From NCBI RefSeq assembly GCF_000006405.1, contig NW_003210480.1, positions 16,079 to 80,078 on the forward strand: a stretch of 64,000 bases of DNA, in the 5' to 3' direction. Position numbers and translations under genes: made by a program. The notes beneath the pieces were generated by a model, which did no database searches, was not told the DNA's origin, and saw only the letters and a program-made list of their open reading frames with translations. Positions 3,371-62,700 of this stretch are shown one piece after another. The stretch is from Perkinsus marinus ATCC 50983. Lineage: Eukaryota > Perkinsozoa > Perkinsida > Perkinsidae. Numbering within the stretch: position 1 is the first letter of the stretch; each line of letters starts with the position of its first letter.

Positions 3371-3856
3371 TAGATGGGCAGCGTAACGTTTTTACGGTGC
3401 TCGTAACGTAAGCAGTTTACGGTTACGGAAAGGCCTTACGACTTTACGGTTGATGTTGAACTGCTTTGTTAGAATTGTGACGGAAACATTCACTGTAAAG
3501 CACTCCTCCATAGCTCAAATAGTTGTTAAACTCATTCTTCGTGGCTCGAGTTCACCGAGCCGCTGAGAGAGTAACATTTGGTTTCGCATTTACCACTCGT
3601 CTCCTTCGCAAATTTCGTCCGTTTTACTTCCGAGCTAGCCCGGAACTGCCAAGCCGGCTTCGTCTACCGATGGGCATTCACATGAAATAGATTCAGACGA
3701 CTTGAAATACCAATCCTCGTTTTGTCCTCTGCATCTCCATAAGACCCGACGGGCCTGGCCCGTTACGGCGCCGTAATGTTACGGTACGGGATTTGAATCG
3801 TTACGTAAAAGCGAGCAGCCGTAACGGTCCGCAACGTAATTCTGCCAATCTGTAGA
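3371..3856. mobile_element. hAT-like non-autonomous element, 486 bp
   Basis: The ends are imperfect inverted repeats (TAGATGGGCAGCGTAACG on the left, and the complement of CGTAATTCTGCCAATCTGTAGA on the right). Both subterminal regions are packed with the word TTACG or CGTAA. The flanks TTGTAGTA (3363-3370) and CTGTAGTA (3857-3864) match at 7 of 8 bases, as expected for an 8-bp hAT target duplication. There is no transposase frame inside. Subterminal repeated words resemble transposase-binding clusters of hAT elements; that role is inferred. Confidence 0.65.
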
Positions 3857-4000
3857 CTGTAGTACCTAGCTCACCATAGGGCTGTATATGTGCTATGATA
3901 GCACTGCTATCATAAGAACATTCTGAGGCTATGGCATTATGACGCTTCTGTATTCTCTATAAGGGAAACACACCCCACATCGCAGTTCTCACTTGGCGAA

Positions 4001-5459: not shown

Positions 5460-7475
5460 ATGACTAGGTTCACTTACGGACTGGAGACTATAGTGGAAGA
5501 GCACCGAAAGAAAATAGAAGACGTTGAACGAAGAGTGAGTTGATCTTCGGATTCGAGTCCTGTCGTTATTCACTTGCATGGGGAATCTCCGCTGGTACAA
5601 AAGCCGCTGGTCAATTCCTCCTCTTACCAGTTGAACTTCCGAGGTTCAACCTCGGAAAAAAAACTGCATATCTTTTTCTCCAATTTCAGTGGATTTAAAA
5701 TGACTTTAAATTGAAGCCGATAATCGGCTTCGATTTTAGGGATTGTCGAGAATCATTCTCGGATTTATTTCCCTCTACGAGAACTGATTCCTAATCTCGG
5801 GATTAGCTAGATCTTCCTAATCTCGGGATTAGCTAGATCTTCCTAATCTCGGGATCGGTTCGTCGAACAACTCGAAGAAGATTCATCCGTACGGGGTATG
5901 TCATACCCGGTATGACTACTGTGGGGGTGTTCATCGAGAATTCTGTTCAGCTGGAAGATGAAAGACTGCATCGACGTGCTCGAGAAGAGGAGCTCGAAAC
6001 ACTAAGAGCTACAGTGACCGCTATAGAGACAGAAAACGCCCAGCTGAAATGTCGAATTGCCAAACGGGTATGCTCTCCCCTGCTTTGGGACCCCAAGTTT
6101 GGGTGAAAACGGCCGCAGTCTCATTAGGATTCGTAGGAACCCATATACACTACCTCAGTAGTGGCAACGATCGAAGCGATGAAGAGGGATCGACTCGTCA
6201 TGGACACGCAAATAATGAAGATCGTAGAGCGAGCTCATGCTTTGGAGCGCGAGAAAGAGAAGTGGTTGGTTGAGAAGGAGCAACTCGAAAAGCGGTTGAA
6301 AGAGTCCGTTGGAAAATGTGAAAGAATGGCGGAAAACCTGGGCGCGAAGGAGATTTTGCGGCTGAAAGTCGCTCATGCTGATGAGACTGTTGCGGACTAC
6401 AAAATCCGGCTTATAGAAATCGAAGAGGAGAAAAAGGCGCTGTGCGAGGAGCACGAGAGCCTCCGAGAGGAATTGGTCCAACTCATGTCGAACTTTGCAA
6501 TTTATTCAGCTCTAAAGGAAGACGTACGTTGTACGCACTGCGAAGAATCTATGATGCATTTCGAAGATTTGCTGGCCCTATTCTATCGACGAGAGCGTGA
6601 TTTGCTGATGAGGCTTGAATCGCCAGCTCATAGCTTGGGTGTGAGCGGAAGGATTCACGATGAGCACCGGGATCTTCAGCAAGGCAACACCACTGTGGCA
6701 AGAAATACAGACGAGAACGCTATGTGCGATCAGTCTGTGCAGCACCAGTCGAGTTTTGCTTGGCAAAATCCCGCAAACGATGAGGTGTCTGGGCTGAATG
6801 AACGGGTATCAATGCTCGAAGCGGAGAATGAGGAGCTCAAGGCTGGTCGTCGATCATCAGAGAGCATAGTTGAACGACTAAAACTCGATCTAGTAGGCGC
6901 CCGAGATCTTAGCGCTGACTTGAACAACCAATTACTTGATTTTGCTCGGCCAGCATCCATCATCGAAAGCGAAAGCCCACTATCACAGGTGAGCCCTTCA
7001 GACATGTACTCGTAGTAAGGCGATATCTAGACGGCGTCTTCACCGTGCGTGAGAGAGCATGGTCGTTCGCCGACCGAGAGTGATGTACATAGTGGATTCA
7101 CTCCCCTCACGCCGAGACGTTCGCGGAGACGACGGAGTAGTTGATTCGTGGAAATGTGCCTTTCGCGGCTAATTTCATTGAAGGTTCTTCCAGCGGCATT
7201 TACGGTCTCTTGGCGCGAGCTACAGGGCACACCCCTGATCGCGACTCCGCGACTAAGAAGATCCATGAGCTTCAGCGGATTGCACAAGAACTCACTATGC
7301 ACGTGAGTGCATCAGCACTTCGAAGTGGAATTCACTTTCACTCTCACAGGTCGAAGAAAAGGAAGAGACAATTTTCCATTTGCGGAGATTGTTGTCCGAG
7401 CATAAAGACTTTCTGGTGTCCGAGACTTCCCCTACTTCGGCTATGCCCCCTAGTGAATGTTCTGATACTATATAG
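5460..7475 (+). CDS. Coiled-coil protein, six exons, 464 residues
   Basis: Exons 5460-5534, 5951-6067, 6137-6988, 7031-7136, 7184-7302 and 7350-7475 join in frame (1395 nt) from ATG to TAG. Introns are GT-AG, of 416, 69, 42, 47 and 47 nt. The first two exons and the large third exon (residues about 1-150) are highly charged Glu/Lys/Arg/Leu helix. A Cys-x2-Cys pair follows near residue 170, then a Ser/Asn-rich linker and a second coiled coil (about residues 270-320). The fourth and fifth exons encode an Arg/Ser-rich linker, and the last returns to coiled coil. This is typical of cytoskeletal or centrosomal scaffold proteins, but I recognise no specific family. The long first intron contains a 26-bp tandem repeat. 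The exact acceptor of intron 2 is the least certain join. Confidence 0.65.
5788..5855. repeat. Tandem repeat, 26-bp unit, 2.6 copies
   Basis: The unit TTCCTAATCTCGGGATTAGC plus six bases repeats at 5788, 5814 and 5840. It lies in the first intron of the coiled-coil gene and follows several short palindromes. Confidence 0.85.
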
Positions 7476-9358
7476 TATCTATCACGACTCATTCGATAGG
7501 TTTGAGTTTGTCAACTTGAGTCCGCTTATAGCGCTAACCGAACTACGAGTGTGATGCACTACAACACTCTTTTCCGGATTACTGGTATGGTTGAACGAAA
7601 TAATCGTTGGCGGACTTTTGGTACGACGCACTACAATAAATCTCTTGGGGTTGGAATGTAGAATTAACTAATAGTACATGATGATTGTTTCAAACAACCA
7701 TCATCGGCCATCCATCGACAATCATCGTTTCATTACAAACAATTTGTTTGTAATGGGAGACGACTAAGAACGGGCTCCGTGAGCACCATTCTCTCAGTGG
7801 AGGGAGACTCGGGATACGCAGAGACGCTCTCGAAAAGCGACCTGTTCTAGCGCGATAATGCTACAAAAAGATCGCCGGCAAGAATATCTTCCGTACATTT
7901 TCCAACTGCAATACCAAAGATGACCTTTCAAAAATGACCTTTGAAAGGTGACCTGCCAGAGATAATGATGGTGATTGTGACTTTCCTCACGACCAGTAAA
8001 TTGATAAACCCAGTATTAGAGACCTGAACGACATAACTCTCTCGACCGTTTATGCTTTATGTAGTAGTTCACTTCAAGCATTGGAATTGCTGGGATGTTG
8101 TCAGTGTTCGCTGGCAAAAACCAGATCTTAGTTCTCACGATGGGATGGTGAGTGTTCACCAAGTACAGATCGTCGAATACGGGCACCACCACTGTGGTGG
8201 CACCACTATGATACCCTGGCCCAGAGAATTTTGCAAGTTCAGCTCTAGTACGAGTCCTGTGTATCGCGCGCTGAGTATCATAACGGAACATCATGAGATG
8301 CCTGGCTCGCTGGAAAGACATAGCATGAGATAAATAAGAGCAACATGGAACTTGCGCGACCTTTGACTCGAACTTTCGTATTTGCGTATACTACACGGAT
8401 TGAGAAACAACAAATGATACCTCCTGCTTTATACGAATCTTCCCTACACCGTGCGCACGCCTAGCAGCATGCAACGTTCTGTGCCGTCGATAATCTTCGA
8501 GGCGGTCCCGTCCACTCTTTTTCAAGTAAGTTATGCAACGTCACTCTTTCGAATTTTCCCGCACCGTGTGGGCCGCACGGTTATGTCGTCGCGACAGTGC
8601 CGTGGGACCCATGCCCACGGAAATGTTGAGCGCATTCACTGCTGCTACTCGAGGTGACCGAGGCAGACGTCGAAACTTCGTTCGCGCACCAATTTACGCC
8701 CGCGCCCTAAAACCATCTTTGTTGGAATTTCGTCTTCGCCTAGTAAGTCTGTGACTATGAACTCAGCAAATATACCCTCCATTGCACATATCTGGATTGA
8801 GCTATACAACCTGAATGAATTTCGCTACGTGCTTTGTCTCCAGAAATAAAGTTATAGCTTATCCAGGTCACGGTTTCTGTTGATGTTATGTATCCTTATC
8901 ATAACTCAACTCACCAACTGATTGTTCATATACCACTTACTTCAACATTCACTCCTTATTCGCAATTCTGCCTCCAATATACGCTTGGTTAGTTCAACAC
9001 GTCTTGTATTACATTACTTTTCACAGGAAGTGACCTCATATTTATTATACTACAACACAGCGCCTTCTATCATTATATGACTACTAACATTCAACGGTCA
9101 AAATGATAACTTAGAGATGACACAATGGTCATCTCGAGATCAAAGGTGTTTCAACTACGAATAATTCAATATCGATACTAACAGACAAGGCCATGAAGAC
9201 CCGTCTGTGCACAGAACGTGAAGATGAGAGACGATGTTTGTCCTCCGTAAACTTCACATGAATAGAAAATCGACCAGGAATGAAAAGTAGCTGCATCTTT
9301 TTATTGCAGTAAAATGCTAAATGATGAAACTACTTCGAGTAGCTGCATCATTTAATAA
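7476..9358. other. Intergenic stretch with weak exon-like signals
   Basis: I see no confident gene. A plus-strand ATG at 8469 opens 19 codons that end at a strong GTAAGT donor (8526), but the only nearby acceptor (8597) gives a short frame ending at 8657. A reverse-strand frame at 8016-8321 is open but unrecognised. Short palindromes occur at 7678-7702 and 7731-7755. Confidence 0.4.
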
Positions 9359-29450: not shown

Positions 29451-29680
29451 GAATAACAAACGCTGAGCAAGGAAAGGAATGGATGCTCCTAATTTAGACG
29501 TCGTTTGTGATATTCGAATGAAATGAGTATCCCATCAATACTCATCTTTCGATTGCCGACACTTTCGGATTGGAGTGGTATGATACTACCGCAGTTGGGG
29601 CTGCGGGCAGAGTTTGGTCGAGCAGAGGGGCGGCTATGCCATCGCAAAAAAATGCCCTAGTACAATCAACTTCTCCGATC

Positions 29681-30475
29681 ATGTCTTGACACAATCAATT
29701 TCTCCTTCTGGGGCCGCTATGCCATCCAAACACATGTCTTGACACAATCAATTTCTCCTTCTGGGGCCGCTATGCCATCCAAACACATGTCTTGACACAA
29801 TCAATTTCTCCTTCTGGGGCCGCTATGCCATCCAAACACATGTCTTGACACAATCAATTTCTCCTTCTGGGGCCGCTATGCCATCCAAACACATGTCTTG
29901 ACACAATCAATTTCTCCTTCTGGGGCCGCTATGCCATCCAAACACATGTCTTGACACAATCAATTTCTCCTTCTGGGGCCGCTATGCCATCCAAACACAT
30001 GTCTTGACACAATCAATTTCTCCTTCTGGGGCCGCTATGCCATCCAAACACATGTCTTGACACAATCAATTTCTCCTTCTGGGGCCGCTATGCCATCCAA
30101 ACACATGTCTTGACACAATCAATTTCTCCTTCTGGGGCCGCTATGCCATCCAAACACATGTCTTGACACAATCAATTTCTCCTTCTGGGGCCGCTATGCC
30201 ATCCAAACACATGTCTTGACACAATCAATTTCTCCTTCTGGGGCCGCTATGCCATCCAAACACATGTCTTGACACAATCAATTTCTCCTTCTGGGGCCGC
30301 TATGCCATCCAAACACATGTCTTGACACAATCAATTTCTCCTTCTGGGGCCGCTATGCCATCCAAACACATGTCTTGACACAATCAATTTCTCCTTCTGG
30401 GGCCGCTATGCCATCCAAACACATGTCTTGACACAATCAATTTCTCCTTCTGGGGCCGCTATGCCATCCAAACGT
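29681..30475. repeat. Minisatellite, 53-bp unit, 15 copies
   Basis: Fifteen 53-bp units run head to tail, each containing CTTGACACAATCAATTTCTC and GGGGCCGCTATGCCATCCAA. The units look essentially identical, with degenerate partial units at both ends (29640-29680 and 30476-30500). There are no spacers distinct from repeats, so it is not CRISPR. Such homogeneity indicates recent amplification. It lies upstream of the RRP41-like gene. Confidence 0.97.
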
Positions 30476-30633
30476 ATATCTTGACACAATCACTTCACGG
30501 TGAGGACTGAGCTATCCTATCAAGACGTCGGACATTACTGCCCGTAAGCCCAATCCCCCTCCCAGGCGTATCAAACTATCATTCAAGCAACCCCTCTCTA
30601 GTGCTACTGCACATGGACTGATAGGCTTGGTAC

Positions 30634-30819
30634 CAGCGTTGGAATGCGTGTTCACTTTCCTGAGCTAAGCTCGTGAGTTTCCTCACTAATGATAGAAGTT
30701 TATATACTAATCCGGGTGGAAATGTACAGGAATTAACAATAATTTCCCAAAATTTCCTCAGAATTTTCATATGGTCACCAACATATGTGGTCGACCATGT
30801 GCATATTTCCCTACATTGG
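30634..30819 (+). mobile_element. MITE family B copy
   Basis: A 186-bp full copy from CAGCGTTGGAA to CCCTACATTGG, with GTCACCAACATATGTGGTCG near its right end. Flanks CTTGGTAC and GATGGTAC agree at 6 of 8 bases. Confidence 0.75.
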
Positions 30820-35024: not shown

Positions 35025-35142
35025 GGTGTTTCACCCTAGTGATATGAAAAACACTATTGAAAAATATATTTCACGACTACTGCATATTACCGCGAATATC
35101 GCGTTTTTCACCGAGTAATACGCCACAAACGGGTGAAACTCC
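35025..35142. mobile_element. MITE family A copy at the left edge of unit 1
   Basis: A 118-bp copy with the TTCACGACTACTGCATATTA and GCGAATATCGCG words. The duplication shared with unit 3 begins within this MITE, at about 35072, because the unit 3 copy is cut at the same internal word. Confidence 0.8.
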
Positions 35143-35408
35143 ACCTTTGGGACTCTGAAACTACACCGCTTCCCAATCCACTAGATCGGATCTATTCCAC
35201 GAATTGTCACTTCAAGTTCATATACTGCCACATATTCCAACTTCCGCTGATCGAATTTTTGCCTCTCCCGTTTAACATTTTTCATTTCAAATTCATTCCT
35301 TTCCGAGTTGATTTCGCGATAACCAGAAAGGGAAACGACAATACAGTATATGGAAATGGGTACGGAAAAATATCGTCGTTCACCAGAAATTGGAACGGCA
35401 GTATATGA

Positions 35409-35437
35409 ATTCGAGGTGACCAATGGTCACCTCGAAT
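35409..35437. repeat. 29-bp perfect palindrome specific to unit 1
   Basis: Arms ATTCGAGGTGACC and its complement around the loop AAT. Unit 3 (near 55495) lacks ~35 bp here and has no palindrome. Confidence 0.9.
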
Positions 35438-35833
35438 CTAAGAATCGTCATTGACCATTCTCGGAATGGATCGGGAAATGGTGTATTTAGAATCGACTCT
35501 CAAAAGTTGTGTGCGTGGGTTCGAAGTCCAACGCCGAAAACCGGCTCAGTCAGATTAGCACCGATGTGTCTTACTCCGAAGGGATGAAGTCAGGCAAGTT
35601 CATTGAGCACACAGAGTAGCACTCAGGCAGGGGATAGGGCAAACCTAGGATACTTTCTAATAGAAAGTTTCTATCCTCTCGGCAGGACGGCTACGCTCCT
35701 AGTACGACCACGAAAAACTGGTCTTTCCTACAAGGTGTCGACCACAAGCATCATCTCCGCAACTCGAAAAGTCCATGCCGTTGAAATTGATGATGGCGCC
35801 CACTCAATCGCCAACCCCTAGCCGTGTCATTCA

Positions 35834-35878
35834 CAGTAACTAGGTGTACTATCACGGTGGTAGTACACCTAGTTACTG
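35834..35878. repeat. 45-bp perfect palindrome specific to unit 1
   Basis: Arms of 17 bp beginning CAGTAACTAGG, with an 11-base loop. Unit 3 (near 55868) has the left arm only and runs straight on into ATATCACCAGC. Confidence 0.92.
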
Positions 35879-35989
35879 GTGATACTATCACCAGCTACCC
35901 ACATATACAGTTCAACAGCCACAAGGCCCAATCAGCAGTTATCAGTCACATAAAAACGCTCGTTCTAGGCTACTGCCTCTACTGTGTCG

Positions 35990-36169
35990 ATTACGTTGCT
36001 GTTATATATGTTGGCTTTCCTCAGCTGATCCTAAGAGTTTCCTCGTCAATTATGAAAGTTCTTATACGACCTGGGATTAAAACGTTTAGGAACTAACCAG
36101 AAATTCCCTTAGATCTTTCATATTGCCACCAACATATTTGGTTGACCATGGGTGTATTTTCCCACACTG
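35990..36169 (+). mobile_element. MITE family B copy in unit 1
   Basis: A 180-bp copy with GCTTTCCTCAGCTGATCC and a TTTTCCCACACTG end. The orthologous copy in unit 3 lies at about 55985-56162, so the insertion predates the duplication. Confidence 0.75.
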
Positions 36170-36217
36170 GTTGTCACTTGTACGAACTCAACTCTCTCGT
36201 AATAGAACATTGACTCT

Positions 36218-38538
36218 TCACGGGATCACCAGACCAGGAGGTCCGAACATGCGTTCAACCCATTGCTTCGTTTTAGTCAAATAGAACTCAGGATCAGAAG
36301 CATAGTTCAAGTAGGCCCTAGCAGGCCATGTCAATGACGCCACTGTAGACTTGCCGTACAGGGCGGGCTCTATGTTGGTTCCCTCGTGCCACTCGTTGAA
36401 AGACGTTATAGAAACCTGAGGAAAACACTGGTCGCGACTTTGTACATGCGCCATACCATTTTTGGTCGAAGTCTGGCAGCCTCGGAGAACATATGGTCGA
36501 AGTATTGACCATCACGACGATCGCGAGTGTTGGCGAAGTTCCAAGGCCGCACCTCTACGTCAATATACCCTGGCCCTACCTGAACCATTGATTTCCCTAG
36601 AGAGTGGTATATAACTAAATCACTTTATTTCGCCACGCTAAAATGAAGGGAGTTTGCTCACGCTCGGTATAAAGTAAATGCCAGCCTCTTGCGCGACTCG
36701 GCCCATGTAGTGCCAGTTGGAAGGAGTACTGCCGTACACGAAACCAGCTGCTGCGAAATAGGTATAGAACCCATCTGCGAGAGAGTTCATGCATAACACA
36801 ATATCGCAACAGTAACTCATGAGCTCATCAGTAAAGTAAAAACTCTGCAAAATTTGTAAATGTTTATATGGCTTCGTGAGCCTCTCTACTCACCGAATCC
36901 TGATTTGGTATAAGTCGAGTGGGCCGCCTCGACCCATAGAAAGATCGCTGTGCAGTCCAAACCGGTTTTACCGCGGACCGACAGGTCCCCACTCGGGGTC
37001 AACAACCTAGCCCATTCCTCTGGAGAATTGTGGTAGCTATCGTAGATGTATCTAGGCTAGAACTCAACAATCATTATATCGGCTATTGCAACTCACACGA
37101 GAGGAAGAAGCGTTCCGTCACGAACATTGGCGACTCTGTGAAGCGCTGGGTGCTTCCCGTAGTGTGTGTGAATGTATTCAAAGTCTTTACGTACCGTAGA
37201 CGGGTTACGGCCTACACTTGCAGTGTCGAGATATACGCTCGCCTTTCCTCAGCTGAGCCCAGGAATTTCCTCACTAATTGTAGGAGTTCATATACGAATT
37301 CAGGCAGAAGCGTACAGAAATTAACAATAATTTTTCACATTGTCACCAACATATGTAGTTGAACCCAGTGTTGGAGTATATGTTCGCTTTCCTCAGCTGG
37401 GCTTGAGAGTTTCCTCATTAATTATAGAAGTCCACATACGAATTCGGGTAGAAGTGTACAAAAACCTCCAAGAAATTTCCAAAATTTCCTCCTAATTTTC
37501 ATTTTTTACCAACACGTCATACGAAGCCGTCAGTGTATCACACCTTCGTATGGCTCCAAGTGAATAGCAACTCTCATGCCGTGAGCCCACGCGATATCGA
37601 GTAGTAATGCTCGCAATATGTCGACGGTTTGGTTTAGATCGTCAAGCGCTGGGTCGTGGAGACCAGGGGGATACCTCGGGTTCGGTTTGATACTAGGATT
37701 TCGCAAGAGTGTGGTACCAGCTCACAACAGCTACACCCAGGCCAGCCCTCTTCATCATGTCCATATGAGTGGCGATGGTTTGAGGGTCCAGCGAGGAGTA
37801 GGGTCCGAGCTGAGGCCAATACGATGACCCTATGTCATCATTCTCGGGGATATGCTCGTCTTCAGCGTATCTACGATGAGACTGTTCCTCGTCGTAGAGT
37901 ATATGTTTGATTGACGTTCTCAGCTCAGTTCAGGAGTTTCTCCAAGGCACTATGGAAATTCGCGCGTGACTAAGAAGAATGCTTTACAGAGACTAACAGG
38001 AATCTCCCAAAATTTTCATGAAGACCTGGACACGCGTAGTTGACCACATGGATGTTTTCCCAACGCTGAGTAAGAAACCGTTTACTAGGGTTTCTGACTA
38101 TTTCGTGTCTCACTTTTTGGCAATTTCTTGGTCCCAATGAGACAACCGCTGATGATTCCAATGAGACCAGTTCCCATCCCTATCCTTGTTGCGATACCAC
38201 ATGTAATAGAATACATGAGCATTGCAACGCCACCCACAGGAGCTATCACTAAGTGTTGGTTCGCTAGTCACGACTGCGGACTGGGAAGACTTGGTCGTCG
38301 TTACTTTCTCGCGAGTACTCAGAGTTGTCGGACTTGCGTTCACCTTTACAGTGTCGTCAGTGGCTATGAAAACGCTGTTGAGATTTCTTATTGGTCTGCT
38401 TTTGAGAGGACCTCTTAGGTGATGTTCATTGTGTGAATCAGAAGAGTTGATTAGAATAAGGAGAAGGACAATCACATATGTGAACGAAACGATGCCGATG
38501 AGAATGGGAGTAGCTGATCGCCATTTTGAGAGACGCAT
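36218..38538 (-). CDS. GH99 endo-alpha-1,2-mannosidase (MANEA-like), unit 1
   Basis: Eight exons (38538-38114, 37918-37718, 37674-37544, 37211-37097, 37051-36894, 36774-36662, 36579-36457, 36415-36218) join with consistent phases into 1464 nt, 487 residues. An N-terminal transmembrane span (residues about 8-32) and a Ser/Thr-rich stem mark a type II membrane protein, as in Golgi mannosidase. Family blocks in order: WYRNKD...HWNHQRL, GPYSSLDPQTI, VSWYPPG, HLEPYE, YIYDSYHN, GFYTYFAAAGF, PSVGPGYIDVEVRPWN and SITSFNEWHEGTNIEPA. The family trims glucosylated mannose from N-glycans. Introns of 41-45 nt coexist with long ones that hold MITEs; the acceptor of exon 2 lies inside one. The catalytic block HLEPYE is intact. 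Confidence 0.92.
37221..37515 (+). mobile_element. Two adjacent family B MITEs in a GH99 intron
   Basis: Copies at about 37221-37365 and 37366-37515 abut, the second starting CAGTGTTGGAGTATATG exactly where the first ends. Both lie wholly within intron 37212-37543 of the unit 1 GH99 gene. Unit 3 has the same pair at about 57222-57515. Confidence 0.75.
37893..38070 (+). mobile_element. Family B MITE supplying a GH99 splice acceptor
   Basis: The element lies in the first GH99 intron and extends into exon 2. Its conserved CTGAGCTGAG-type end forms the acceptor (exon starts at 37918), and its terminal ~30 bases are read as codons. Confidence 0.6.
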
Positions 38539-38686
38539 ATGAAATAACTTATTGAGATCCGCCCATTCGGACTTTGTCGTTGGACGAGGAAGTACCGATT
38601 AATCTCGTACAACAAAAGTTGTCAATTCTTAGCAGAAATTTCTATCATGGTACAGATACTGGCCAAATATCACTATAGAGAGCAAA

Positions 38687-39651
38687 TCATGCGAATACAG
38701 GATCAAGACATACAACAGAATGGTTTTTCCTCACGAACCATAAGCAGCCCTCGTTACTAACAAAAAATCGGCAGAAATTAATACGTGGAAGTGGCACACG
38801 AATAAAAACAATATTCTGACGGAGGTCTATGATGGACACAGTAAGCGTCTTCGTTCCGTGGTGATAGCCAATTATGAAGCACTGATCTCTCTCATTATCA
38901 ACGTCAAGGTCACGACCATATACATCCAACTTGACAACTTCGCTTAAGACGTTCCTGGGAATAGAAATGGCGCTTACAACAGAGTCATTCGTGTCTCGCT
39001 GGAGTAGGAGGATTTGAGACTTCTTTTCGCTTTCGTACACACACAGGCCTTCTGCTGGACGCTGACTGCAGTCAATAACAGTGCTCGGTAATCCATCTTG
39101 ATCGATACGAATCACGGATTCACCTTGCCATGAGAGGCCATAGAAACAACCATCATGAGAAGAGAAGACGGGTTTGAAGAGACAATCAGCAGTGGTCCTT
39201 CCAGAAGTCCATGAGGGCAGCAACAGCCCGCTCCGTGACTCGTCCCGTTCCCAGTTCGAGAACCGGCACATGCGTCCAGTGTTTTGTTCGATGCTGATTA
39301 GTTGTCGACTTTTGCTATCATACGCCAGACAGAGCAGAGTACCCACATTGAGGGTTTCGTGTTCATTAAGATTGTTGTTTGAGGTGAGTTCGAGGACGAC
39401 ACATTCATAGAGGCTAATGTCTCGCAATGTGAGCAGACCAGAACCATCTGCTAGTCGGCAACAGGATGAGGGGGAGATGTCGGTCGCGACGATTCTAGGG
39501 CGGTAAAAGCCTCCAGTCGAGGCAACAGCAATTCCCAAATGTCTAAGAGGCATCAGTTGGGCAAGAATCCTCCATAGCGCGTAACGAGTGCCTGGATAGT
39601 CAGTGCCGATCGCTGCCTCTTGCTGTGAAATGCGGGAGACACTCTGTTCAT
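38687..39651 (-). pseudogene. Family A gene, unit 1, broken N-terminus
   Basis: Compared with the intact copies at 40507-41469 and 58693-59658, the frame from the homologous ATG (39651) meets a TGA after about 33 codons and has a single-base deletion some 60 bases later. From the motif RIVATDISPSSCC onward the reading frame is intact and highly similar (SGLLTLRD, RFSNWERDE, GCFYGLSWQGES, DVDNERDQCFIIGYHHG, GCLWFVRKNHS). A protein could only begin at an unrelated upstream or internal start. It lies 148 bp upstream of the GH99 start codon on the same strand, as in unit 3. Confidence 0.75.
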
Positions 39652-40224
39652 GAGCCAACTACACGAGTGAAAAATTCAGCATCTATTTCATGGCTATTTC
39701 TGGTACATCTCTGAATGGGTTCTCTCGAAATGCATATCTACTCAAGTGATTCTGTCTGAAGCAAGCTCAACGTCGTAGATTTTCTGGTCACTTCATACCC
39801 TTTTAAAGTGACAGGCCGAAAACCCAAGTACTTGACGAGAAACTTTGATCTTCCGAATTCGGCTGAGGAAAAGATACGCTCCCTAATGAACTTGGGTTAC
39901 TCTAGCCCAACTTGATAGAAATGATTTGGTAACGACTTTACTTGAGTTAGATAGTCATAAAACATAGCGTTGTTTTTCTTATGATCTTAGCAGGATACTC
40001 AGCGCAACAAGCTGCAAACATAAGAAAATACAAAACTACTTATATCCTTGCAAGTGTCTATACACGTCTACTGAGAACTACGAAGAGATTAGATGACGAC
40101 ATGTTTGTGGGAGCATACAATAGCCACCCACTGTGCGATGTGAGAGACAGAAAATCAGAAAATAGCACAAAATCTAATTCTTCGAGGCGATGTCTTCGAT
40201 CCATATCCCAACAATACGATAAAA

Positions 40225-42196: not shown

Positions 42197-42200
42197 ACCT

Positions 42201-42356
42201 TGTGCTGATCTTCGTGGGTGGACATGTGTTATAGAACTCAAATCCCCAGAGTTGGGTGAAGATCTCAATAGTATTAATTAGTGATGACTGATTAGCAGCC
42301 GTTTCATTATCATCATGGGCGTGCGGTACGATAGATACTTGGGCGATCTGAGGACA
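42201..42356 (-). repeat. 3' LTR of element 1
   Basis: 156 bp starting TGTGCTGATC and ending GAGGACA on the plus strand, the same as the other LTR. Preceded by target copy ACCT. Confidence 0.9.
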
Positions 42357-42520
42357 CTGGGGCGCCGGTTTGTTGCTACTAGTTGCAACAGAGAGGGATA
42401 GAAATATATCAGACAAAACGGAATTGAATATATACTTATTATGTGCCGAAAGTGTGAACATCGCCCTAACACCAATCAAACGTGATGCTTATGATCGATC
42501 GGGAAATAGACAAGTGCACC

Positions 42521-45500
42521 CTATGTCACGACACTGAAAGGAAGCGTCCCTGAACTCATCATATATATATGTTCCGGAACTTCGCACCAGATGTTACACG
42601 TGTCACAGGCAATCCACAGCCCAGTAGATAGATGAAGGGGAACGACCGATCTCTGGATTTCCGGCAGATGAGTGGTCTCGTTCTCACCGAGGAAGTGTCG
42701 TGGTGGTGACAGCTGTGGAGGGTTTACCACCGAGTGGTCCTCCGGGCCAGAATTGCCACTAGCTGGGCTGCTCTTAACCTCCAACTTCTTGAAGTCCTCG
42801 AGAAGCTCCATCGAGAGATGTGCAAGCTTCACACGGGAGAGATGTACCTTGCCCATAGGCTTTCCAGATAGACTTTCGATCTCGGCGATCTGGTCAGAGC
42901 TGGTAGGAGCCTTGTAAAGTACAGGACCGACCCATCGGGGAGACAACTTGGAAAAGCCCGTACTGGCCTTAATCCAGAGTGGTGTACCAGCTTTTAGAAG
43001 GGTGCTCTGGTGCCGTCGTCGGTGTTTGCCAACAACCTTCAACTGATTCTCGTAGAGAGTGGCATCGAGGTGCCGATGAAACTCGTCCATCGCGGCGTGG
43101 AAGGCATCTCGTCGATCTTTCAGAAGGGCTTGGTATGTAGTCGCCGAATGCAAGGGAAAGTCACCACTCTCACTTTCGAGCTTGTTGACAAAGATCTGAA
43201 GCTGCTGGTTCGGACGGTAACCAGAACATTTGGGGGGCATCTGTGGATTGTAGGTGAAGGTTAAGTCATTGGGTGAATGATAGCCGAACTCTTCACATGC
43301 TGACTGGTTGAGGACGAAGGCTACCGCTGGCAGTAGTTCATACCACGGAGTAGTTGGCATCGTGGGGTTGCGGCGCTTCTCCTCAAGTTGAATAGCTCGT
43401 ATGCTCGACCACACTTCTTTATGGACGCGTTCCATGTATGCCTGACGGAACGGCGCATAGCTTATACCAGGAAGAACCTTCAATCCCACAGAATGCGCGA
43501 AGGACATGACCTCAGCGCTACAAAACGACCGATCGGCGTCGCACGTGACGAATAGCGGGAAGCCGAAGGTCCAGCAGTAGGATTGCAGTAGGCGACGAGC
43601 AGACAAGGCACTCTTGTCAGGAGATAGTCCAAAGTAGTTGAAACGCCTCGACGGGTCATAAATGTGAAGAGCATATCGGGGTTGAGGATCCTGTCCTTGG
43701 TAGGGAGCCTGTTCCTTCTGACTCACTGGGCCCAGCCAAGCGATAACAATAAAGTTGTTCGCACCGAAGTCGCGAGATAACAACTTGGGAGCGGTGTCAG
43801 GGAAACTCCCTGTGCCCTTGGCCATCTGACACGCCGGACAACTCTTGCAGAACGACCTCACATACGTGGAGAGATTCTTCCAATAGTAGCGAGAGAGCAT
43901 GTAATGGTACATGTATTTACTTGGTCTATGACAGAAGAATACATGGACCATGCTCAGTACTCGATTGCGGGCCTCGGATGGGATATATAGGGCTCCATCT
44001 GACTGTGAGGCAATGTGACCGACCTTGAGCCGCAGCACTGCCTGACCATCCTCTGACTGGACTTCGAACGTAGCCTTCAACCTCGCACGTTCGTCCTTAG
44101 GCACATCCTTGACAAGGGACTCAAGCAAAGCTTTGTCAAAGTTCGAGTCGTCCCCAGTGACGATACGTCGACAGACTGCTGTGAATGCGTCCTTCTGCTG
44201 AAGACTCACGACATAAGAATAGATGTCACTCTCAGTGTCAGCGTCAGGGCTGGCTGCAAGAAAGACTACGGCGTCTTGACCAGGGTTGTCGAATAGCTGT
44301 GCCTCGGTGCCGAGGTCAGCGTGGCTCAGCGTGCAACAGACATGGTCGACCTCCCTCGAAGCCTCGTGTTGGGACCGTACCATTTCAACCCACTGCTGTG
44401 CAGCACCACGATCAAGGAGGTGAGGGTCGATACCACGTGAGTAGGGGTCTGCCAAGTTGTGGGAACTCGGACAGTGTATGAGATGGGTATGCCCAACACC
44501 ATTAGGGCCAATAGCACATACAATTTGACGGATAAGTCGCACAATACGATTGGTGATATTCCACTCCCAGGAAGTCCATCCCTTCGGGAGCTTCTTTGCC
44601 GCCTGACCATCCTCCATTCGCATAACCTTCTCGACTCTGGCCTTGACAATAGTGGAGTCGGTGCATAGATAATAGTGCCGATGTAGCGAATGGGGAAAAT
44701 ATTGCATATGTGCGCAGAATACTTGCAGTCCCCATAAAAAGGCTGAGGATTCCTTCCTGACGATGGAGTAGGAGCTCGAGGGGAGAGGCGGAAGACGAGC
44801 TGAACACAGATACGGGTTGCCGACATCTGTGCCCGCGATCACCATTCCGTAGCCCGACATAGCCGCATCCGTATAGAGAAATACTGCCTCGCTTACGTCA
44901 ACATATCTCGGGACACTGCACGTGGTGACAGTCTCGTTGTAGAGATGGAGTAAGGAGCATGCTTGATCGCGGTCTCCAGGTGACAATCTGGAGTCCATTT
45001 GCAATCCTGCCACAAAGCAGCACCGTAAAATTTTCTTGAGCTTAAGAAGTATCCACGACGCATGGCCCAGGACGTCATAACAGGTGTGGACAGCGGATAA
45101 GAGGCCTCGTACAGTTAACGTCTCGCTAGCATACAATGACGTGTCAACAGGTCTAGGGAGGAACTCATCTTTGGCCGTCCATATAATACCCAGGCCTTCG
45201 GCAACTGTAGGGTCCCAACTTCGCTTAGTCTTCTTTTCCGAGAAGTGCTGGCCTCTGGACTTGGTCACCTGGCCATCCTCGTCGTACATGGTCTCGGCCT
45301 CACGCTGGGAATCCGCTGCCACAACATAGTCATCCATGTAACGGCCCCTGGCACTGTGATTTAAGTACGAGTGGGTACACAGGGCGATGCGCTTCTCCAT
45401 AGTGTTCTTGAGCAAATCATCACCGTCTTCTGCCGTTGTCGCCGTAGAAGATGCTACCCAGCTCGAAGATCCTCGGAGTAACCGTAGATTAGCATCCTCG

Positions 45501-54474: not shown

Positions 54475-55155
54475 TCAACGTCCACAGCGTTTACAGCGCC
54501 GAGAGACATGCTCAGGCTCCTTTTGACGACAGTCCTTGGCGTGATGGTTGGCCTTACCACATCGTCGACAAGTAGGTTTAGTCGTACCAACTTGTTGTAC
54601 ATCGTAATCACCATCCTCTTCAACAATGTTCACGTCGGTCGAATGACCTCGACTGGCTTGACGAGGTTTTTGAGATTGCTGCTGTTGACGGCGTTCCCGA
54701 TCTTCAAGAGTGATGCGACATACCAAACGGCTGTAGGGGTCCAACTGGTGAGTTTTAGCAAACTGTTGTAGATGAGGCGTGATCTTAGACAGTAGGGCTT
54801 GTTTAGCAAGCTCTGGTGTCATCGGGTTACCAACCGCTGCCAAGGCACGCTGTGAACCTTCGAATCGGGCCAGAAAGTCGACGAAAGACTCGTCGCTGGA
54901 TATTGAGAGTGAGTTCCATCCCGCTAGAATATTGGACGTCTCACCATCCGAATCAATAACGGACATCAGACGTGTCCAGAAAAGGTCAACCAACATAGCG
55001 TAAGATGACCGTGTACCTTGTGGGTTCGGAAGCATCATATTCTCGAACACATCTGGCTCGATACAACGACGTAGATAGTAGTAGTAGAAGACAGCACAAC
55101 CAGCATAGCTACTGACAACCTCTTCGAGACGCCTCCTCTTCTTAGAACCCATCAC
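54475..55155 (-). CDS. Element 2 Gag part with zinc knuckle, 226 codons
   Basis: The frame is open from the junction with the MITE (first ATG at 55152). It encodes a helical Gag core and a CCHC knuckle (CRRCGKANHHAKDC) and ends at TGA 54477-54475 in the middle of a second Cys cluster. Reading on in the same frame gives the rest of the cluster, a further CCHC knuckle, and then the protease. The true 5' end is missing. Confidence 0.85.
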   Translation of the reverse strand: MMGSKKRRRLEEVVSSYAGCAVFYYYYLRRCIEPDVFENMMLPNPQGTRSSYAMLVDLFWTRLMSVIDSDGETSNILAGWNSLSISSDESFVDFLARFEGSQRALAAVGNPMTPELAKQALLSKITPHLQQFAKTHQLDPYSRLVCRITLEDRERRQQQQSQKPRQASRGHSTDVNIVEEDGDYDVQQVGTTKPTCRRCGKANHHAKDCRQKEPEHVSRRCKRCGR

Positions 55156-55223
55156 GACTACTGCATATCACAGCGAATATCGCGTTTTTCACCGAGTAAT
55201 ACGCCACAAACGGGTGAAACTCC
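55153..55223. mobile_element. MITE family A, cut copy at the left edge of unit 3
   Basis: The right ~70 bp of the MITE that is complete at 35025-35142. The break point coincides with the truncated end of element 2. Confidence 0.85.
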
Positions 55224-55984
55224 AATAAACCACCTTTGGGGCTCTGGAACTACACCATTTCCCGTTCTACTAGATCAGATCTATTCCACGAATTGTCACT
55301 TTCAAGTTCATATACTGCCACATATTCCAACTTCTAGTGATCGAATTTTTTTCCTCTCCCGTTTAACATTTTTTCATTTCAATTTCATTCTTTTCCGAGT
55401 CGATTTCGCGATTACCAAAAACGGAAACGACAATATATGGAAATGGGTATGGAAAAATATCGTCGGTGGCCAGAAATTGGAGCGGCAGTATATGAATTTG
55501 AAGTGGCAATTCTTGGAATAGATCGGGAAATGGTGTCTTTAGAATCGACTCTCGAAAGTTGTGTGTGGGTTCAAAGTTCAACGCCGAGATCCGGCTTAGT
55601 GAGATTAGCGCTGATGCATCGTACTCCAAGAGGGTTGAAACCAGGCAAGTTCATTGAGCACATAGAGTAACACTCAGGCAGAGGATAGGGCAAACCTAGG
55701 ATACTTTCTATCCTCTCGGCAGGATACGCTCCTAGTACGACCACGAAAAACTGGTCTTTCCTACAAGGTGTCGACCACAAGCATCATCTCCGCAACTCGA
55801 AGAGTCCATGCCGTAAGAATGGATGATGTCACCCATTCCATCACCAACCCCTAGCCGTGTTATTCACAGTAACTAGGTGTAATATCACCAGCTACCCACA
55901 TATACAGTTCAACAGCCACAAGGCACAATCAGCAGTTATCAGGCACATAATAACGCTCGTTGTAGGCTACCGCCTCTACTGTGT

Positions 55985-56162
55985 CGATTACATTGTTGTA
56001 ACATATGTTGGCCTTCCTCAGCTGATCCTAGTTCCCTCGTCAATTATAGGAGTTTTTATACGACCTAGGATAGAAACGTTTAGGAACCAACCAGAATTTC
56101 CTCAGAATTTTCATATTGCCACCAACATATGTGGTTGACCATGGGTGTATTTTCCCACACTG
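55985..56162 (+). mobile_element. MITE family B copy in unit 3
   Basis: The orthologue of the copy at 35990-36169, with a small deletion after CTCAGCTGATCC and an intact TTTTCCCACACTG end. Confidence 0.75.
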
Positions 56163-56210
56163 GTTGTCACTTGTTCGAACTCAACTCCCTCATAATAGAA
56201 CTGTGAATTT

Positions 56211-58539
56211 TCACGGGATCACCAGACCAGGAGGTCCGAACATGCGTTCAACCCATTGCTTCGTTTTAGTCAAATAAAACTCAGGATCAGAACCATAGTT
56301 CAAGTAGGCCCTAGCAGGCCATGTCAGTGACGCCACTGTAGACTTGCCGTACAGGGCGGGCTCTATGTTGGTTCCCTCGTGCCATTCGTTGAAGGACGTT
56401 ATAGAAACCTGACGAAAACACTGGTCACGAATACGTACATGCGCCATACCATTTTCGGTCGAAGTCTGGCAGCCTCGGAGAACATATGGTCGAAGTATTG
56501 ACCATCACGACGATCGCGAGTGTTGGCGAAGTTCCAAGGCCGCACCTCTACGTCAATATACCCTGGCCCTACCTGAGCCATTGATTTCCCCAGAGAGTGG
56601 TATATAACTAAATCACTAATTTTCGCAACGCTAAAATGAAGGGAGTTTGCTCACGCTCGGTATAAAGTAAATGCCAGCCTCTTGCGCGACTCGGCCCATG
56701 TAGAGCCAGTTGGACGGAGTACTGCCGTACACGAAGCCAGCAGCTGCGAAATAGGTATAGAACCCATCTGCGAGAGAGTTCATGCATAACACAATATTCA
56801 ACGATCGCAACAGTAACTCATGAACTCATCAGTAAAGTAAAAACTCTGAAAAATTTGTCAATGTTGATATGGCTTCGTGAGCCTCTCTACTCACCGAATC
56901 CTGATTTGGTATAAGTCGAGTGGGCCGCCTCGACCCATAGGAAGATCGCTGTGCAGTCCAAACCGGTTTTACCACGGACCGAGAGGTCCCCATTCGGGGT
57001 CAACAACCTAGCCCATTCTTCTGGAGAATTGTGGTAGCTATCGTAGATGTATCTATGCTGGAACTCAACAATCATTAGATCGGCTATTGCATCTCACACG
57101 AGAGGAAGAAGCGTTCCGTCACGAACATTGGCGACTCTATGGAGAGCTGGGTGCTCCCCGTAGTGTGTGTGAATGTATTCAAAGTCTTTACGTACCGTAG
57201 AAGGGGTACGACCTACACTCACAGTGTTGAGATATACGTTCGCCTTTCCTCAGCTGAGCCCAGGAATTTCCTCACTAATTGTAGGAGTTCATATACGAAT
57301 TCAGGCAGAAGCGTACAGAAATTAACAATAATTTTTCACATTGTCACCAACATATGTAGTTGAACCCAGTGTTGGAGTATATGTTCGCTTTCCTCAGCTG
57401 GGCTTGAGAGTTTCCTCACTAATTATAGAAGTCCGCATACGAATTCGGGTAGAAGTGTACAAAAACCTCCAAGAAATTTCCAAAATTTCCTCCTAATTTT
57501 CATTTTTTACCAACACGTCATACGAAGCCGTCAGTGTATCACACCTTCGTATGGCTCCAAGTGAATAGCAACTCTCATGCCGTGAGCCCACGCGATATCG
57601 AGTAGTAATGCTCGCAATATGTCGACGGTTTGGTTTAGATCGTCAAGCGCTGGGTCGTGGAGACCAGGGGGATACCTCGGGTTCGGTTTGATACTAGGAT
57701 TTCGCAAGAGTGTGGTACCAGCTCACAACAGCTACACCCAAGCCAGCCCTCTTCATCATGTCCATATGAGTGGCGATGGTTTGAGGGTCCAGCGAGGAGT
57801 AGGGTCCAAGCTGAGGCCAATACGATGACCCTATGTCATCATTCTCGGGGATATGCTCATCTTGAGCGTATCTACGATGGGACTGTTCCTCGTCGTAGAG
57901 TATATGTTTGATTGACGTTTTCAGCTCTGTTTAGGAGCTTCCCCAAGACAGTATGGAAATTCGCGCCCGACTAAGAAGAATGCTTTATAGAGACTAACGG
58001 GAATCTCCCAAAATTTTCATGAAGACCTGGACACACGTAGTTGACCATATGGATGCTTTCCCAATGCTGAGTAGGAAACCGTTTACTAGGGTTTCTGACT
58101 ATTTCGTGTCTCACTTTTTGGCAACTTCCTGGTCCCAATGAGACAACCGCTGATGATTCCAATGAGACCAGTTCCCATCTCTGTCCTTGTTGCGATACCA
58201 CATGTAATAAAATACATGAGCGTTGCAACGCCACCCACAGGAGCTATCACTAAATGTTGGTTCGCTCGTCACGACTGCGGACTGGGAAGGCTTGGTCGTC
58301 GTTACTTTCTCGTGAGTACTCAGAGTTGTCGGACTTGCGTTCACCTTTACAGTGACGTCAGTGGCTATGAAAACGCTGTTGAGATTCCTTATTGGTCTGC
58401 TTTTCAGAGGACCTCTTAGGTGATGTTCATTGTGTGAATCAGAAGAGTTGATTAGAATAAGGAGAAGGACAATCACATATGTGAGCGAAACGATGCCGAT
58501 GAGAATGGGAGTAGCTGATCGCCACTTTAAGAGACGCAT
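56211..58539 (-). CDS. GH99 endo-alpha-mannosidase, unit 3, possibly not functional
   Basis: From ATG 58539 it has the same eight coding blocks as the unit 1 gene, with conservative changes only: the transmembrane head, GPYSSLDPQT, the HLEPYE block, YIYDSYHN, GFYTYFAAAGF, VGPGYIDVEVRPWN and SITSFNEWHEGTNIEPA. The acceptors and donors of the later short introns are preserved. The acceptor of exon 2, however, has changed from AG to AA (near 57919), and none of the nearby AG sites restores the frame with the unchanged donor of exon 1. Without an unrecognised alternative the transcript would be frameshifted after about 141 codons. The two family B MITE insertions in its introns match those of unit 1. 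Confidence 0.75.
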
Positions 58540-58692
58540 ATGAAGCAACTGCTCATATGCATTGAGATCCGCCCACTCGGGCTTTGTCGTTGGACGAGGA
58601 AGTACGAATTCATCTCATACAACACAAGTTGTCACTTCTTAGAAGTCCTATCATGATCCATGTACTGGCCAAATATCACTATAGGGAGCAAA

Positions 58693-59658
58693 TCACGCGA
58701 ATACAGGATCAACACATACAACAGAATGGTTTTTCCTCACGAACCATAAGCAGCCCTCGTTACTAACAAAAAATCGGCAGAAATTAATACGTGGAAGTGG
58801 CACACGAATAAAAACAATATTCTGACGGAGGTCTATGATGGACACAGTAAGCGTCTTCGATCCGCGGTGATAGCCAATTATGAAGCACTGATCTCTCTCG
58901 TTATCAACGTCAAGGTCACGACCATATACATCCAACTTGACAACTTCGCTTAGGACGTTCCTGGGGTTAGAAATGGCGCTTACAACAGAGTCATTCGTGT
59001 CTCGCTGGAGTAGGAGGATTTGAGACCTCTCTTCGCCTTCGTACACACACAGTCCTTCTGCTGGACGCTGACTGCAGTCAATAACAGTGCTCGTTGATCC
59101 ATCTTGATCGATACGAATCACGGATTCACCTTGCCATGAGAGGCCATAGAAACAACCATCATGAGAAGAGAAGACGGGTTTGAAGAGACAATCAGCAGTG
59201 GTCCTTCCAGAAGTCCATGAGGGCAGCAACAGCCCGCTCCGTGACTCGTCCCGTTCCCAGTTCGAGAAGCGGCACATGCGTCCAGTGTTTTGTTCGATGC
59301 CGATTAGTTGTCGACTTTTGCTATCATACGCCAGACAAAGCAGAGTACCCACATTGAGGGTTTTGTGTTCAATAAGATTGTTGTTCGAGGTGAGTTCGAG
59401 GACGACACATTCATAGAGGCTACTGTCTCGCAATATGAGCAGACCAGAACCATCTGCTAGTCGGCAACAGGATGAGGGGAGAATGTCGGTCGCGACGATT
59501 CTAGGGGCGGTAAAGGCCTCCAGTCGAGGCAGTAGCAAATCCCAAATGTCCACGAGACAATCAGTCGGCAAGAATCCTCCATAGCGCGTAACGAGTGTTT
59601 GGATAATTAGTGCTGATCGCTGCCTGTTGCCGTGAAATGCGGGAGACATTCTGTTCAT
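58693..59658 (-). CDS. Family A protein, unit 3, intact, 321 residues
   Basis: An uninterrupted frame from ATG 59658, with the same head as unit 2 (TDCLVDIWDLLLPRLEAF) and the same propeller-like blocks (SGLLILRDS, GRMCRFSNWERDE, GCFYGLSWQGES, QCFIIGYHRGSK, GCLWFVRKNHSV). Its body is closer to the unit 1 copy, its head to the unit 2 copy. It lies about 150 bp upstream of the unit 3 GH99 start codon on the same strand. Function unknown. Confidence 0.75.
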   Translation of the reverse strand: MNRMSPAFHGNRQRSALIIQTLVTRYGGFLPTDCLVDIWDLLLPRLEAFTAPRIVATDILPSSCCRLADGSGLLILRDSSLYECVVLELTSNNNLIEHKTLNVGTLLCLAYDSKSRQLIGIEQNTGRMCRFSNWERDESRSGLLLPSWTSGRTTADCLFKPVFSSHDGCFYGLSWQGESVIRIDQDGSTSTVIDCSQRPAEGLCVYEGEERSQILLLQRDTNDSVVSAISNPRNVLSEVVKLDVYGRDLDVDNERDQCFIIGYHRGSKTLTVSIIDLRQNIVFIRVPLPRINFCRFFVSNEGCLWFVRKNHSVVCVDPVFA

Positions 59659-60254
59659 GAGCCAACTACAGGAGTGAAAAACTCAGCATCTATTTCTGGT
59701 ACACCCCTGAAGGGGTGCTCTCGAAATGCATATTTACTCAAGTCATTCTGTTCAAAGCAAGCTCAACGTCGTAGATTTTCTGGTCACTTCATACCCTTGT
59801 AAAGTGACAGGCCAAGAACCCAAGTACTTGACGAGAAACTTTGATCTTCCGAATTCGGCTAAGAAAAAGACACGCTCCTCAATGAACTTGGGTTACTCTA
59901 GCCCAACTTGATAGAAATGATTTGGTAACGACTTTACTTGAGTTAGATAGTCATAAAACATAGCGTAGTTTTCTCTTATGATCTTAGTACGATACTCAGC
60001 GCAACAGGCTGCAAACATATGAAAATACAAAACTACTTATATCCTTGCAAGTGTCTATACACGTATACTGAGAACTACGAAAAGATTAGATGACGACATG
60101 TTTGTGGGAGCATACAATAGCCACCCACTGTGCGATGTGAGAGACAGAAAATCAGAAAATAGCACAAAATCTAATTCTTCGAGGCGATGTTTTCGACTCA
60201 TATCCCAACAATACGACAACTTACTAGAGTCTTCTGGAAAGACTCACAGGTTGA

Positions 60255-62209: not shown

Positions 62210-62700
62210 TATGTACCATAATAATATGGTGATTGAGAGTTTGATCGGGTCTTTCTCTGATCCTGGGGCGGTGGCCACTCGAATCGAGGTGCTGTCAACT
62301 CGTTGTCCATCAGCGGAGTATCGTGCAACGGGCACTCGACGCGCTGATGCTCGGTCCCGGTTCTCCGTTCTCAGTCGAGGACCATCGAAGCTCAGTAATG
62401 TCAGGATGTGTGCTGTCTCTCACCACTTACCGAGGATCCACAAACCTCATATCAAAGCATACTGCATGTCCCGAACTACTCATTGTTACTAACAATTTGT
62501 TAGACCACCGATGGGTTCCACGCGCAGTCGGCAAATAATTAGATCGACGCTCCATGTCCCGCGATGCATTGTCCGCTTCCAAACTGAATCCGCCACCCAT
62601 ATGATCTAATCCTTTGACTTTACCGTTTGCCCTCAGTCCGTTTGAGAGCAGTTGAATGGTGGCCGCCACTACACTCGCTAGCCCTTTTTTCACAAAATCC
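62210..62700 (-). CDS. Unrecognised protein fragment, two exons
   Basis: An exon from about 62690 to 62431 (ASVVAATIQLLSNGLRANGK, GGGFSLEADNASRDMERRSN, ending FVDP) meets a GTAAGT donor. After a 40-nt intron (62391-62430), an exon from 62390 continues in frame (RVPVARYSADGQRVDSTSIR) to about 62210, where the frame runs into a family B MITE. The 5' start is unclear: only a GTG or an upstream splice acceptor is available. No family recognised. The good donor, the typical intron length and the maintained frame are the support. Confidence 0.4.

What the first reader, a model, noticed from the sequence alone, without database searches (positions are those of the whole stretch)
35409..35878. Palindromes created by insertion in one of two duplicated units
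At three sites unit 1 carries extra bases that unit 3 lacks, and each insertion makes a short perfect inverted repeat: 35409-35437 (13-bp arms), 35652-35668 (7-bp arms, 14-base insertion) and 35834-35878 (17-bp arms). The flanking sequences align cleanly between units. Loss of a palindrome in unit 3 is possible, but the presence of one arm there favours gain by copying the neighbouring strand in inverted order. This would be an active template-switch mutation process or a class of tiny hairpin elements.
Basis: seen in the sequence. Interest (0 to 1): 0.78.

Follow-up and report, generated by a model that had tools for sequence, protein, structure and literature searches.

The report
Scars of jumping genes in Perkinsus
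Three small palindromes in one of two duplicated DNA units look like scars left where a cut-and-paste transposon of the hAT type jumped out, and 14-base scars of the same form recur in the sampled parts of this marine parasite's genome, a natural record of how its cells heal such breaks.

Summary
Against unit 3, unit 1 has three extra stretches (35, 14 and 36 bp), the only gaps of 12 bp or more in a 5.2-kb alignment; each makes a palindrome. A third copy, on contig C294, lacks all three, so gain is favoured. Template switching is not the best mechanism, because the geometry is fixed. Write an 8-bp target as aXb (X = 6 bp): site 2 reads aX·rc(aXb)·Xb exactly. About 282 kb of held DNA holds 35 distinct instances of this form; every other geometry tried with X of 6-11 bp gives none, and simulated sequence gives none. 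Eight scars have an empty relative in held DNA; in 7 it reads the target exactly. Longer scars show two hairpins with 1-base loops around the same 6 bp. An 8-bp duplication plus flank hairpins turning on the base next to the element is published hAT chemistry. The genome has hAT transposase ORFs and hAT-like small elements with 8-bp duplications. No target with element in one copy and scar in another was found, so the donor is unproven.

The parts
35071..40222 (+). Unit 1, the copy that carries the three palindromic insertions
   Evidence: blastn of window against itself
55152..60219 (+). Unit 3, the copy without them
35409..35437 (.). Site 1 palindrome: 14-bp arms, 1-base loop; target read as GTGACCAT (a=G, X=TGACCA, b=T), left aX at 35416-35422
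35438..35451 (.). Site 1: 14 bp of unexplained origin between the palindrome and the second X
   Evidence: best other match in the window 11 bp at 52264
35452..35458 (.). Site 1: second copy of X plus b (TGACCAT)
35653..35674 (.). Site 2: exact scar CTTTCTA-ATAGAAAG-TTTCTAT; target CTTTCTAT; unit 3 reads the empty target
35834..35878 (.). Site 3 left hairpin: 22-bp arms (1 mismatch), 1-base loop G = complement of b
35879..35892 (.). Site 3 right hairpin (GTGATA-C-TATCACC); target read as CTATCACC; here the loop is a rather than its complement
3890..3911 (.). Exact scar, target GTGCTATC
5894..5915 (.). Exact scar, target GGGTATGA; also present in C294
50978..50999 (.). Exact scar, target CTCATCTC, inside the ORF 50926-54291 (-)
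62482..62503 (.). Exact scar, target ATTGTTAG
3742..3763 (.). Scar form with 1 mismatch
5633..5654 (.). Scar form with 1 mismatch
6083..6104 (.). Scar form with 1 mismatch
8186..8207 (.). Scar form with 1 mismatch
8558..8579 (.). Scar form with 1 mismatch
30634..30818 (.). Copy of the hAT-like small element family (ends CAGCGTTGGAATGCGT / CAATGTAGGGAAATAT, flanking 8-mers 6 of 8 alike)
   Evidence: C346:46712-46896

Best explanation
The palindromic insertions are excision footprints of a cut-and-paste transposon of the hAT type. Insertion duplicates an 8-bp target aXb. On leaving, the transposase nicks each flank one base outside the element, and the freed 3' end attacks the other strand, so each flank is sealed as a hairpin whose tip is the complement of the base that bordered the element. 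The host opens each hairpin away from its tip, leaving overhangs that hold rc(aXb) on one side and aXb on the other; these two 8-base stretches are complementary. If they anneal, the repaired site is exactly aX·rc(aXb)·Xb, a net gain of 14 bp (site 2 and the common class). If they do not, the opened hairpins are joined end to end, with or without loss of one of them, which gives longer scars such as sites 1 and 3. Shown: geometry, loop-base rule, empty sites, gain polarity in a multicopy family, hAT transposase ORFs, hAT-like elements with 8-bp duplications. Inferred: that a hAT element made these scars, the repair path, and that local hopping explains the clustering.
For: Geometry: 35 distinct exact instances for X=6 with one flanking base, 0 for every other combination of X 6-11 and flank 0-3; X of 4-5 gave 0-3 per combination; simple-repeat targets left out. 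With X=6 and free spacers, 36 at spacers 1 and 1 and 6 in the other 24 spacer combinations; of the 36, the left loop is the complement of b in 31 and the right loop the complement of a in 32. One-base-loop palindromes with arms of 7 or more number 132 in the two contigs; the other loop lengths 0-12 have 8-29 each (summed). Two-hairpin scars with the same X on both sides: 9 rows at loops 1 and 1 against 1 in the other 24 combinations, 7 of 9 rows obeying both loop rules; two loci appear in both contigs, so 5 of 7 loci. Empty sites: 8 scars have an empty relative in held DNA, 7 of them with the exact target; the others have no relative held or one of equal length. Polarity: five exact 14-bp insertions in an 11-copy repeat. 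Target preference: T at position 2 or A at 7 in 41 of 106 against 28.8 expected, p 0.012, not corrected for the 6 tests made. Transposase: PF05699 at 14 places, two long ORFs with DUF4371 plus the hAT dimerisation domain. hAT-like elements with CAGTG-type ends: of 172 candidate end pairs, 4 (165-189 bp) have perfect 8-bp duplications and 3 have 7 of 8. [quoted passage not shown] hAT makes hairpins on the flank (PMC6900584); Hermes has 8-bp duplications and nTnnnnAn (PMC10368747).
Against: No target was found with the element in one copy and a scar in another; three young-looking elements of C294 have flanks 182-218 bp apart in C346 too, so are probably filled there. Short P-nucleotide scars, reported for plants, are not above the mirror control, apart from one cell of 3 against 0. 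No complete element with terminal repeats was delimited around the two hAT ORFs examined. The small-element family is hAT-like by ends and duplication only. Site 1 has 14 unexplained bases and site 3 a right loop of the wrong base. Of 32 long-arm (9 or more) one-base-loop palindromes, 17 have no recognised direct repeat. Unit 1 could be the outgroup of unit 3 and C294 near the sites, which weakens the polarity of sites 2 and 3.
Confidence: 0.86

Rival explanations
1. Short-range template switching in replication, or synthesis-dependent end joining: the polymerase copies a neighbouring stretch in inverted order and returns.
For: A four-point switch reproduces site 2 with no extra base, and site 1 with 13-14 and site 3 with 3-4 extra bases plus mismatches. 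Inverted copies are over-represented among indels. Template switching is documented genome-wide in great apes (PMC7954356, section 8 part 1 read).
Against: It has no reason to give X of 6 and an inverted copy of 8 every time, nor one-base loops. The great-ape events vary in length (median 12, maximum 128).
Confidence: 0.06
2. A hAT-derived, domesticated transposase or another transposon superfamily with 8-bp duplications makes hairpin-capped breaks. In the domesticated case the breaks might be programmed rather than left by a wandering element.
For: Kat1 of Kluyveromyces is a domesticated hAT transposase that makes hairpin-capped breaks (PMC4763223, passages). Among the 7 indels of 60 bp or more in the aligned segments none is an element with a clean 8-bp duplication, while three exact scars differ between C346 copies and C294 or unit 3. 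Elements around the two hAT ORFs were not delimited.
Against: Each scar keeps a duplicated target, which needs a prior staggered insertion or cut. Targets differ from site to site. A few cut-and-paste elements that jump often would leave many scars and few insertions. Two of the 7 large indels could be insertions of decayed elements: a 325-bp one with a 7-bp repeat and a 668-bp one that holds a family element with 7 of 8 duplicated bases.
Confidence: 0.07
3. Assembly or sequencing artefact.
For: Reads were not available; hairpin chimeras exist in some libraries (recalled).
Against: Six scars have a relative of equal length in the other contig, two of them identical in form, and one scar is shared by three family copies on three contigs.
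Confidence: 0.01

Closest known systems
Ac/Ds, Tam3 and other hAT excision footprints with P-nucleotides
   Same: Palindromic bases at the empty site centred on the complement of the base that bordered the element; arms up to 20 nt reported in yeast (PMC5873905 passages).
   Different: Here one full-length form (inverted copy of the whole 8-bp target, +14 bp) dominates and the short forms are not above control, apart from one cell of 3 against 0.
Hermes (hAT) transposition chemistry
   Same: 8-bp duplication, nTnnnnAn preference and hairpins on the flanking DNA (PMC10368747, PMC6900584 passages).
   Different: The transposase of this genome is seen only as ORFs; no chemistry was tested, and the target preference is weak.
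Template-switch mutations in apes and RNA genes
   Same: Inverted copies of neighbouring sequence create hairpins (PMC7954356 section 8 part 1, PMC8794818 outline and abstract).
   Different: Lengths vary in the ape events and are fixed here.

Membership tests
hAT excision footprint | 8-bp target site duplication | tested here: met
   X of 6 plus one base each side only; 8 scars with empty sites
hAT excision footprint | Palindromes centred on the complement of the base bordering the element (one-base loop) | tested here: met
   31 and 32 of 36; 7 of 9 rows obey both rules; the right loop of site 3 does not
hAT excision footprint | Target preference nTnnnnAn | tested here: inconclusive
   41 of 106 against 28.8, p 0.012, one of six tests
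hAT excision footprint | hAT transposase in the genome | tested here: met
   PF05699 at 14 places; ORFs of 842 and 703 aa with DUF4371 and the dimerisation domain
hAT excision footprint | Element and scar at the same target in different copies | tested here: inconclusive
   None found; three element loci appear filled in both contigs
Plant-type footprint spectrum (a usual, not a defining, feature of hAT) | Short P-nucleotide scars between the duplicated targets | tested here: not met
   At or below the mirror control for inserts of 1-7 bases, except one cell of 3 against 0. The Candida paper reports that palindrome lengths vary by host
Template-switch mutation | Variable switch distances | tested here: not met
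   Single geometry
Small mobile hairpin element | Same inserted sequence at different sites | tested here: not met
   Targets and inserts differ from site to site

The most novel reading that the evidence does not exclude
In this alveolate lineage hAT-type excision is so complete, and its repair so uniform, that nearly every visit ends in the same 14-bp scar: a dedicated repair route opens both hairpins beyond the target and joins them through the 8-base complementarity, instead of nicking near the tip. It could be a programmed, elimination-like process run by a domesticated transposase.
Probability: 0.2. Interest if true: 0.82.

Novelty: new variant of a known kind. Interest (0 to 1): 0.62.

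Why it matters
A transposon scar that can be recognised by form alone, without the element and without knowing its sequence, lets past jumps be counted and dated from any assembly. Exact scars number 28 in the two contigs, which hold 234 kb of unmasked sequence (lengths and masked bases), or about one per 8 kb; if that density were typical, some 6,500 would lie in the 54.5-Mb genome (extrapolation from two homologous contigs). The scars also record in a natural genome which hairpin-opening and joining route was used, a question that others have studied by moving Ac/Ds into plants and yeasts. They show too that short palindromic insertions need not mean template switching.

Tried and rejected
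Template switching was the working hypothesis up to and was given up when the 11-copy repeat showed insertions of one length, and a single geometry. Deletion of palindromes in unit 3 was judged less likely on the third copy and the foldback arm. A local burst of error-prone synthesis in unit 1 was considered: unit 1 has 61 private differences in 1150 columns around the sites (35071-36320) against 78 in 3872 elsewhere, unit 3 has 37 and 95, C294 34 and 88 (summed); this remains unexplained, and unit 1 could also be the outgroup in that stretch. Loss of Ku as a reason for the repair pattern was not supported: a Ku match, a DRMBL (SNM1/Artemis type) match and DNA polymerase A matches are present. 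A strict search for elements with 8-bp duplication and 13-bp ends listed only palindromic 8-mers with inverted-repeat neighbours; a relaxed one led to the CAGTG-ended family. Large indels between contigs gave no element with a clean 8-bp duplication, with two doubtful candidates. A link between the small elements and a hAT gene was not found: related sequence lies both upstream and downstream of the C254 ORF, but no element ends with a shared duplication. Rfam and tRNA scans of the window gave nothing; a PDB sequence search of the C25 ORF gave nothing. Clustering was significant for pooled scar-like features (adjacent gaps under 500 bp: 15 against 3.8, and 20 against 6.2; parts of one long scar may count twice) but for exact scars alone (gaps under 1500 bp) only in one of two contigs.

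Full report
What the window is. It lies at G000:C346:16079-80078 in a 54.46-Mb assembly of 347 contigs. A protein of unit 1 has three relatives at E of 0.001 or better: an unnamed one at 91% identity and two of Perkinsus olseni at 56% and 46%. I take the genome as a Perkinsus; the species is not certain.

The observation. Unit 1 (35071-40222) and unit 3 (55152-60219) are 92% identical. In their alignment of 5201 columns the only gaps of 12 bp or more are 35, 14 and 36 bp, all extra in unit 1. Each extra stretch makes a palindrome with a one-base loop.

Direction. Contig C294 carries a third copy, in a locus that runs from the left flank of unit 1 through one unit into the right flank of unit 3; it lacks all three insertions. 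C294 and C346 share segments of about 62 kb in all, at 92-99% identity, in the 136 and 140 kb fetched. Unit 1 has more private differences near the sites than elsewhere, so for sites 2 and 3 the third copy is not a perfect outgroup. For site 1 the uninterrupted left arm of a foldback gives a second argument for gain.

Beyond the locus. I aligned 14 C346/C294 segments and two further contig pairs (69,177 columns, some of C294 used more than once) and kept 48 of 49 indels of 8-120 bp; one duplicate, and before that indels with masked bases or within 30 bp of a segment end, were dropped. Of these 48, 11 carry an inverted repeat with arms of 7 or more involving the inserted bases, against means of 1.6 (shuffled inserts, maximum 3 in 40 runs) and 1.7 (random places, maximum 5), and 4 in a mirror-repeat control. 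Without the three given sites it is 8 of 45.

The clue. An 888-bp repeat with 11 held copies shows six insertions of exactly 14 bp; five have the exact form aX·rc(aXb)·Xb with X of 6 and the sixth departs from it by changed bases. Site 2 has the same form.

The test. Over 282,173 unmasked bases (overlapping loci counted twice, a few kb) the exact form occurs as 35 distinct instances for X = 6 with one flanking base (34 after merging reverse complements), and not at all for X = 6-11 with the other flanks of 0-3 bases; X = 4-5 gave 0-3 per combination; simple-repeat targets were left out. With up to two mismatches the contrast shrinks: 69 against 26 and 21 for two neighbouring geometries. First-order Markov versions of the two contigs gave 0 in ten runs, exact or with one mismatch, against 28 and 49. 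With free spacers between X, its complement and X, there are 36 cases at spacers 1 and 1 and 6 elsewhere in a 5 by 5 grid; the loop bases follow the rule 'complement of the outer neighbour' in 31 and 32 of 36. Eight scars have an empty relative in held DNA; the relatives lack mostly 14 bp there (11-15 over all of them), and at least one reads the 8-bp target exactly for 7 of the 8, while the eighth (C294:24701) has two changed bases. An independent 10.6 kb fetched later for another reason held one exact scar.

Two-hairpin scars. Nine rows show X, one base, its complement, then a stretch, then the complement, one base, X; seven of nine obey both loop rules (5 of 7 loci, as two loci are in both contigs), and only one row appears in the other 24 spacer combinations. 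At C294:12077-12119 the outer flanks are copied in inverted order after the left and before the right hairpin; at C346:23763-23827 likewise, with a mismatch on the left. This is what two opened, hairpin-capped flanks joined to each other would look like. Of 32 one-base-loop palindromes with arms of 9 or more, 15 have the predicted direct repeat; its length is exactly 6 in 12 and 5 in 3, never longer; three of the 15 belong to the exact class; 17 have none.

Mechanism. [quoted passage not shown] I saw passages of these papers, not the whole texts. The +14 form follows if both hairpins are opened beyond the target and the 8 complementary bases anneal; this step is my inference. Sites 1 and 3 fit longer opening with direct joining, but site 1 leaves 14 bases unexplained and the right loop of site 3 is a, not its complement.

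Agents. The hAT dimerisation domain is found at 14 places, one at the end of C294; ORFs of 842 and 703 aa on C25 and C254 carry it with DUF4371. A family of small elements with CAGTG-type ends has perfect 8-bp duplications at 4 loci (165-189 bp) and 7 of 8 at 3 (185-203 bp), out of 172 candidate end pairs; 60 merged matches, some partial, lie in the held contigs and loci. Whether these are the donors is unknown: no element/scar pair was found.

Against. Short P-nucleotide scars are not above the mirror control, apart from one cell of 3 against 0; the target preference is weak. The clustering of scar-like features could be local hopping, as recalled for Ac, or a preference for noncoding DNA. 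Density and extrapolation rest on two homologous contigs.

Print. Searches of the open library listed no title or abstract start reporting such scars in Perkinsus or a fixed +14 form; some searches listed only 20 of 25, 15 of 17 and 12 of 25 papers, most were not opened, and the library lacks most subscription journals. A yeast paper on Ds hairpins (PMC321453) was not held.

Noticed in passing
window 30634-30818, 35997-36169, 37221-37333, 37366-37515 and further matches, 60 merged in held DNA: A dense family of hAT-like small elements (ends near CAGTGTkGGAaATAT, 8-bp duplications at the best copies); 51 of the 60 merged matches lie in C346 and C294, about one per 4-5 kb of unmasked sequence.
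   Followed up: partly
window 29680-30492: A 53-bp tandem repeat array whose length differs between homologous contigs: C346 has 479 bp more than C294.
   Followed up: no
window 42200-49134: A Bel/Pao-type LTR retrotransposon with a 2160-aa ORF and two identical 157-bp terminal repeats.
   Followed up: no
window 55252-55536 in unit 3; arms 35199-35229 and 35397-35427 in unit 1: An imperfect foldback of about 285 bp present in both units; site 1 sits in its right arm.
   Followed up: partly
window 35071-36320: Unit 1 has about 2.6 times more private substitutions per column here than in the rest of the unit; the rise in unit 3 and C294 is about 1.3 times. Unexplained.
   Followed up: partly
L052 (C228:59600-59830): At the place of a roughly 95-bp insertion in the 888-bp repeat lie three one-base-loop palindromes (arms 19, 11 and 9), as if several excision events had struck one spot; L053 (C247) reads much the same.
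   Followed up: no
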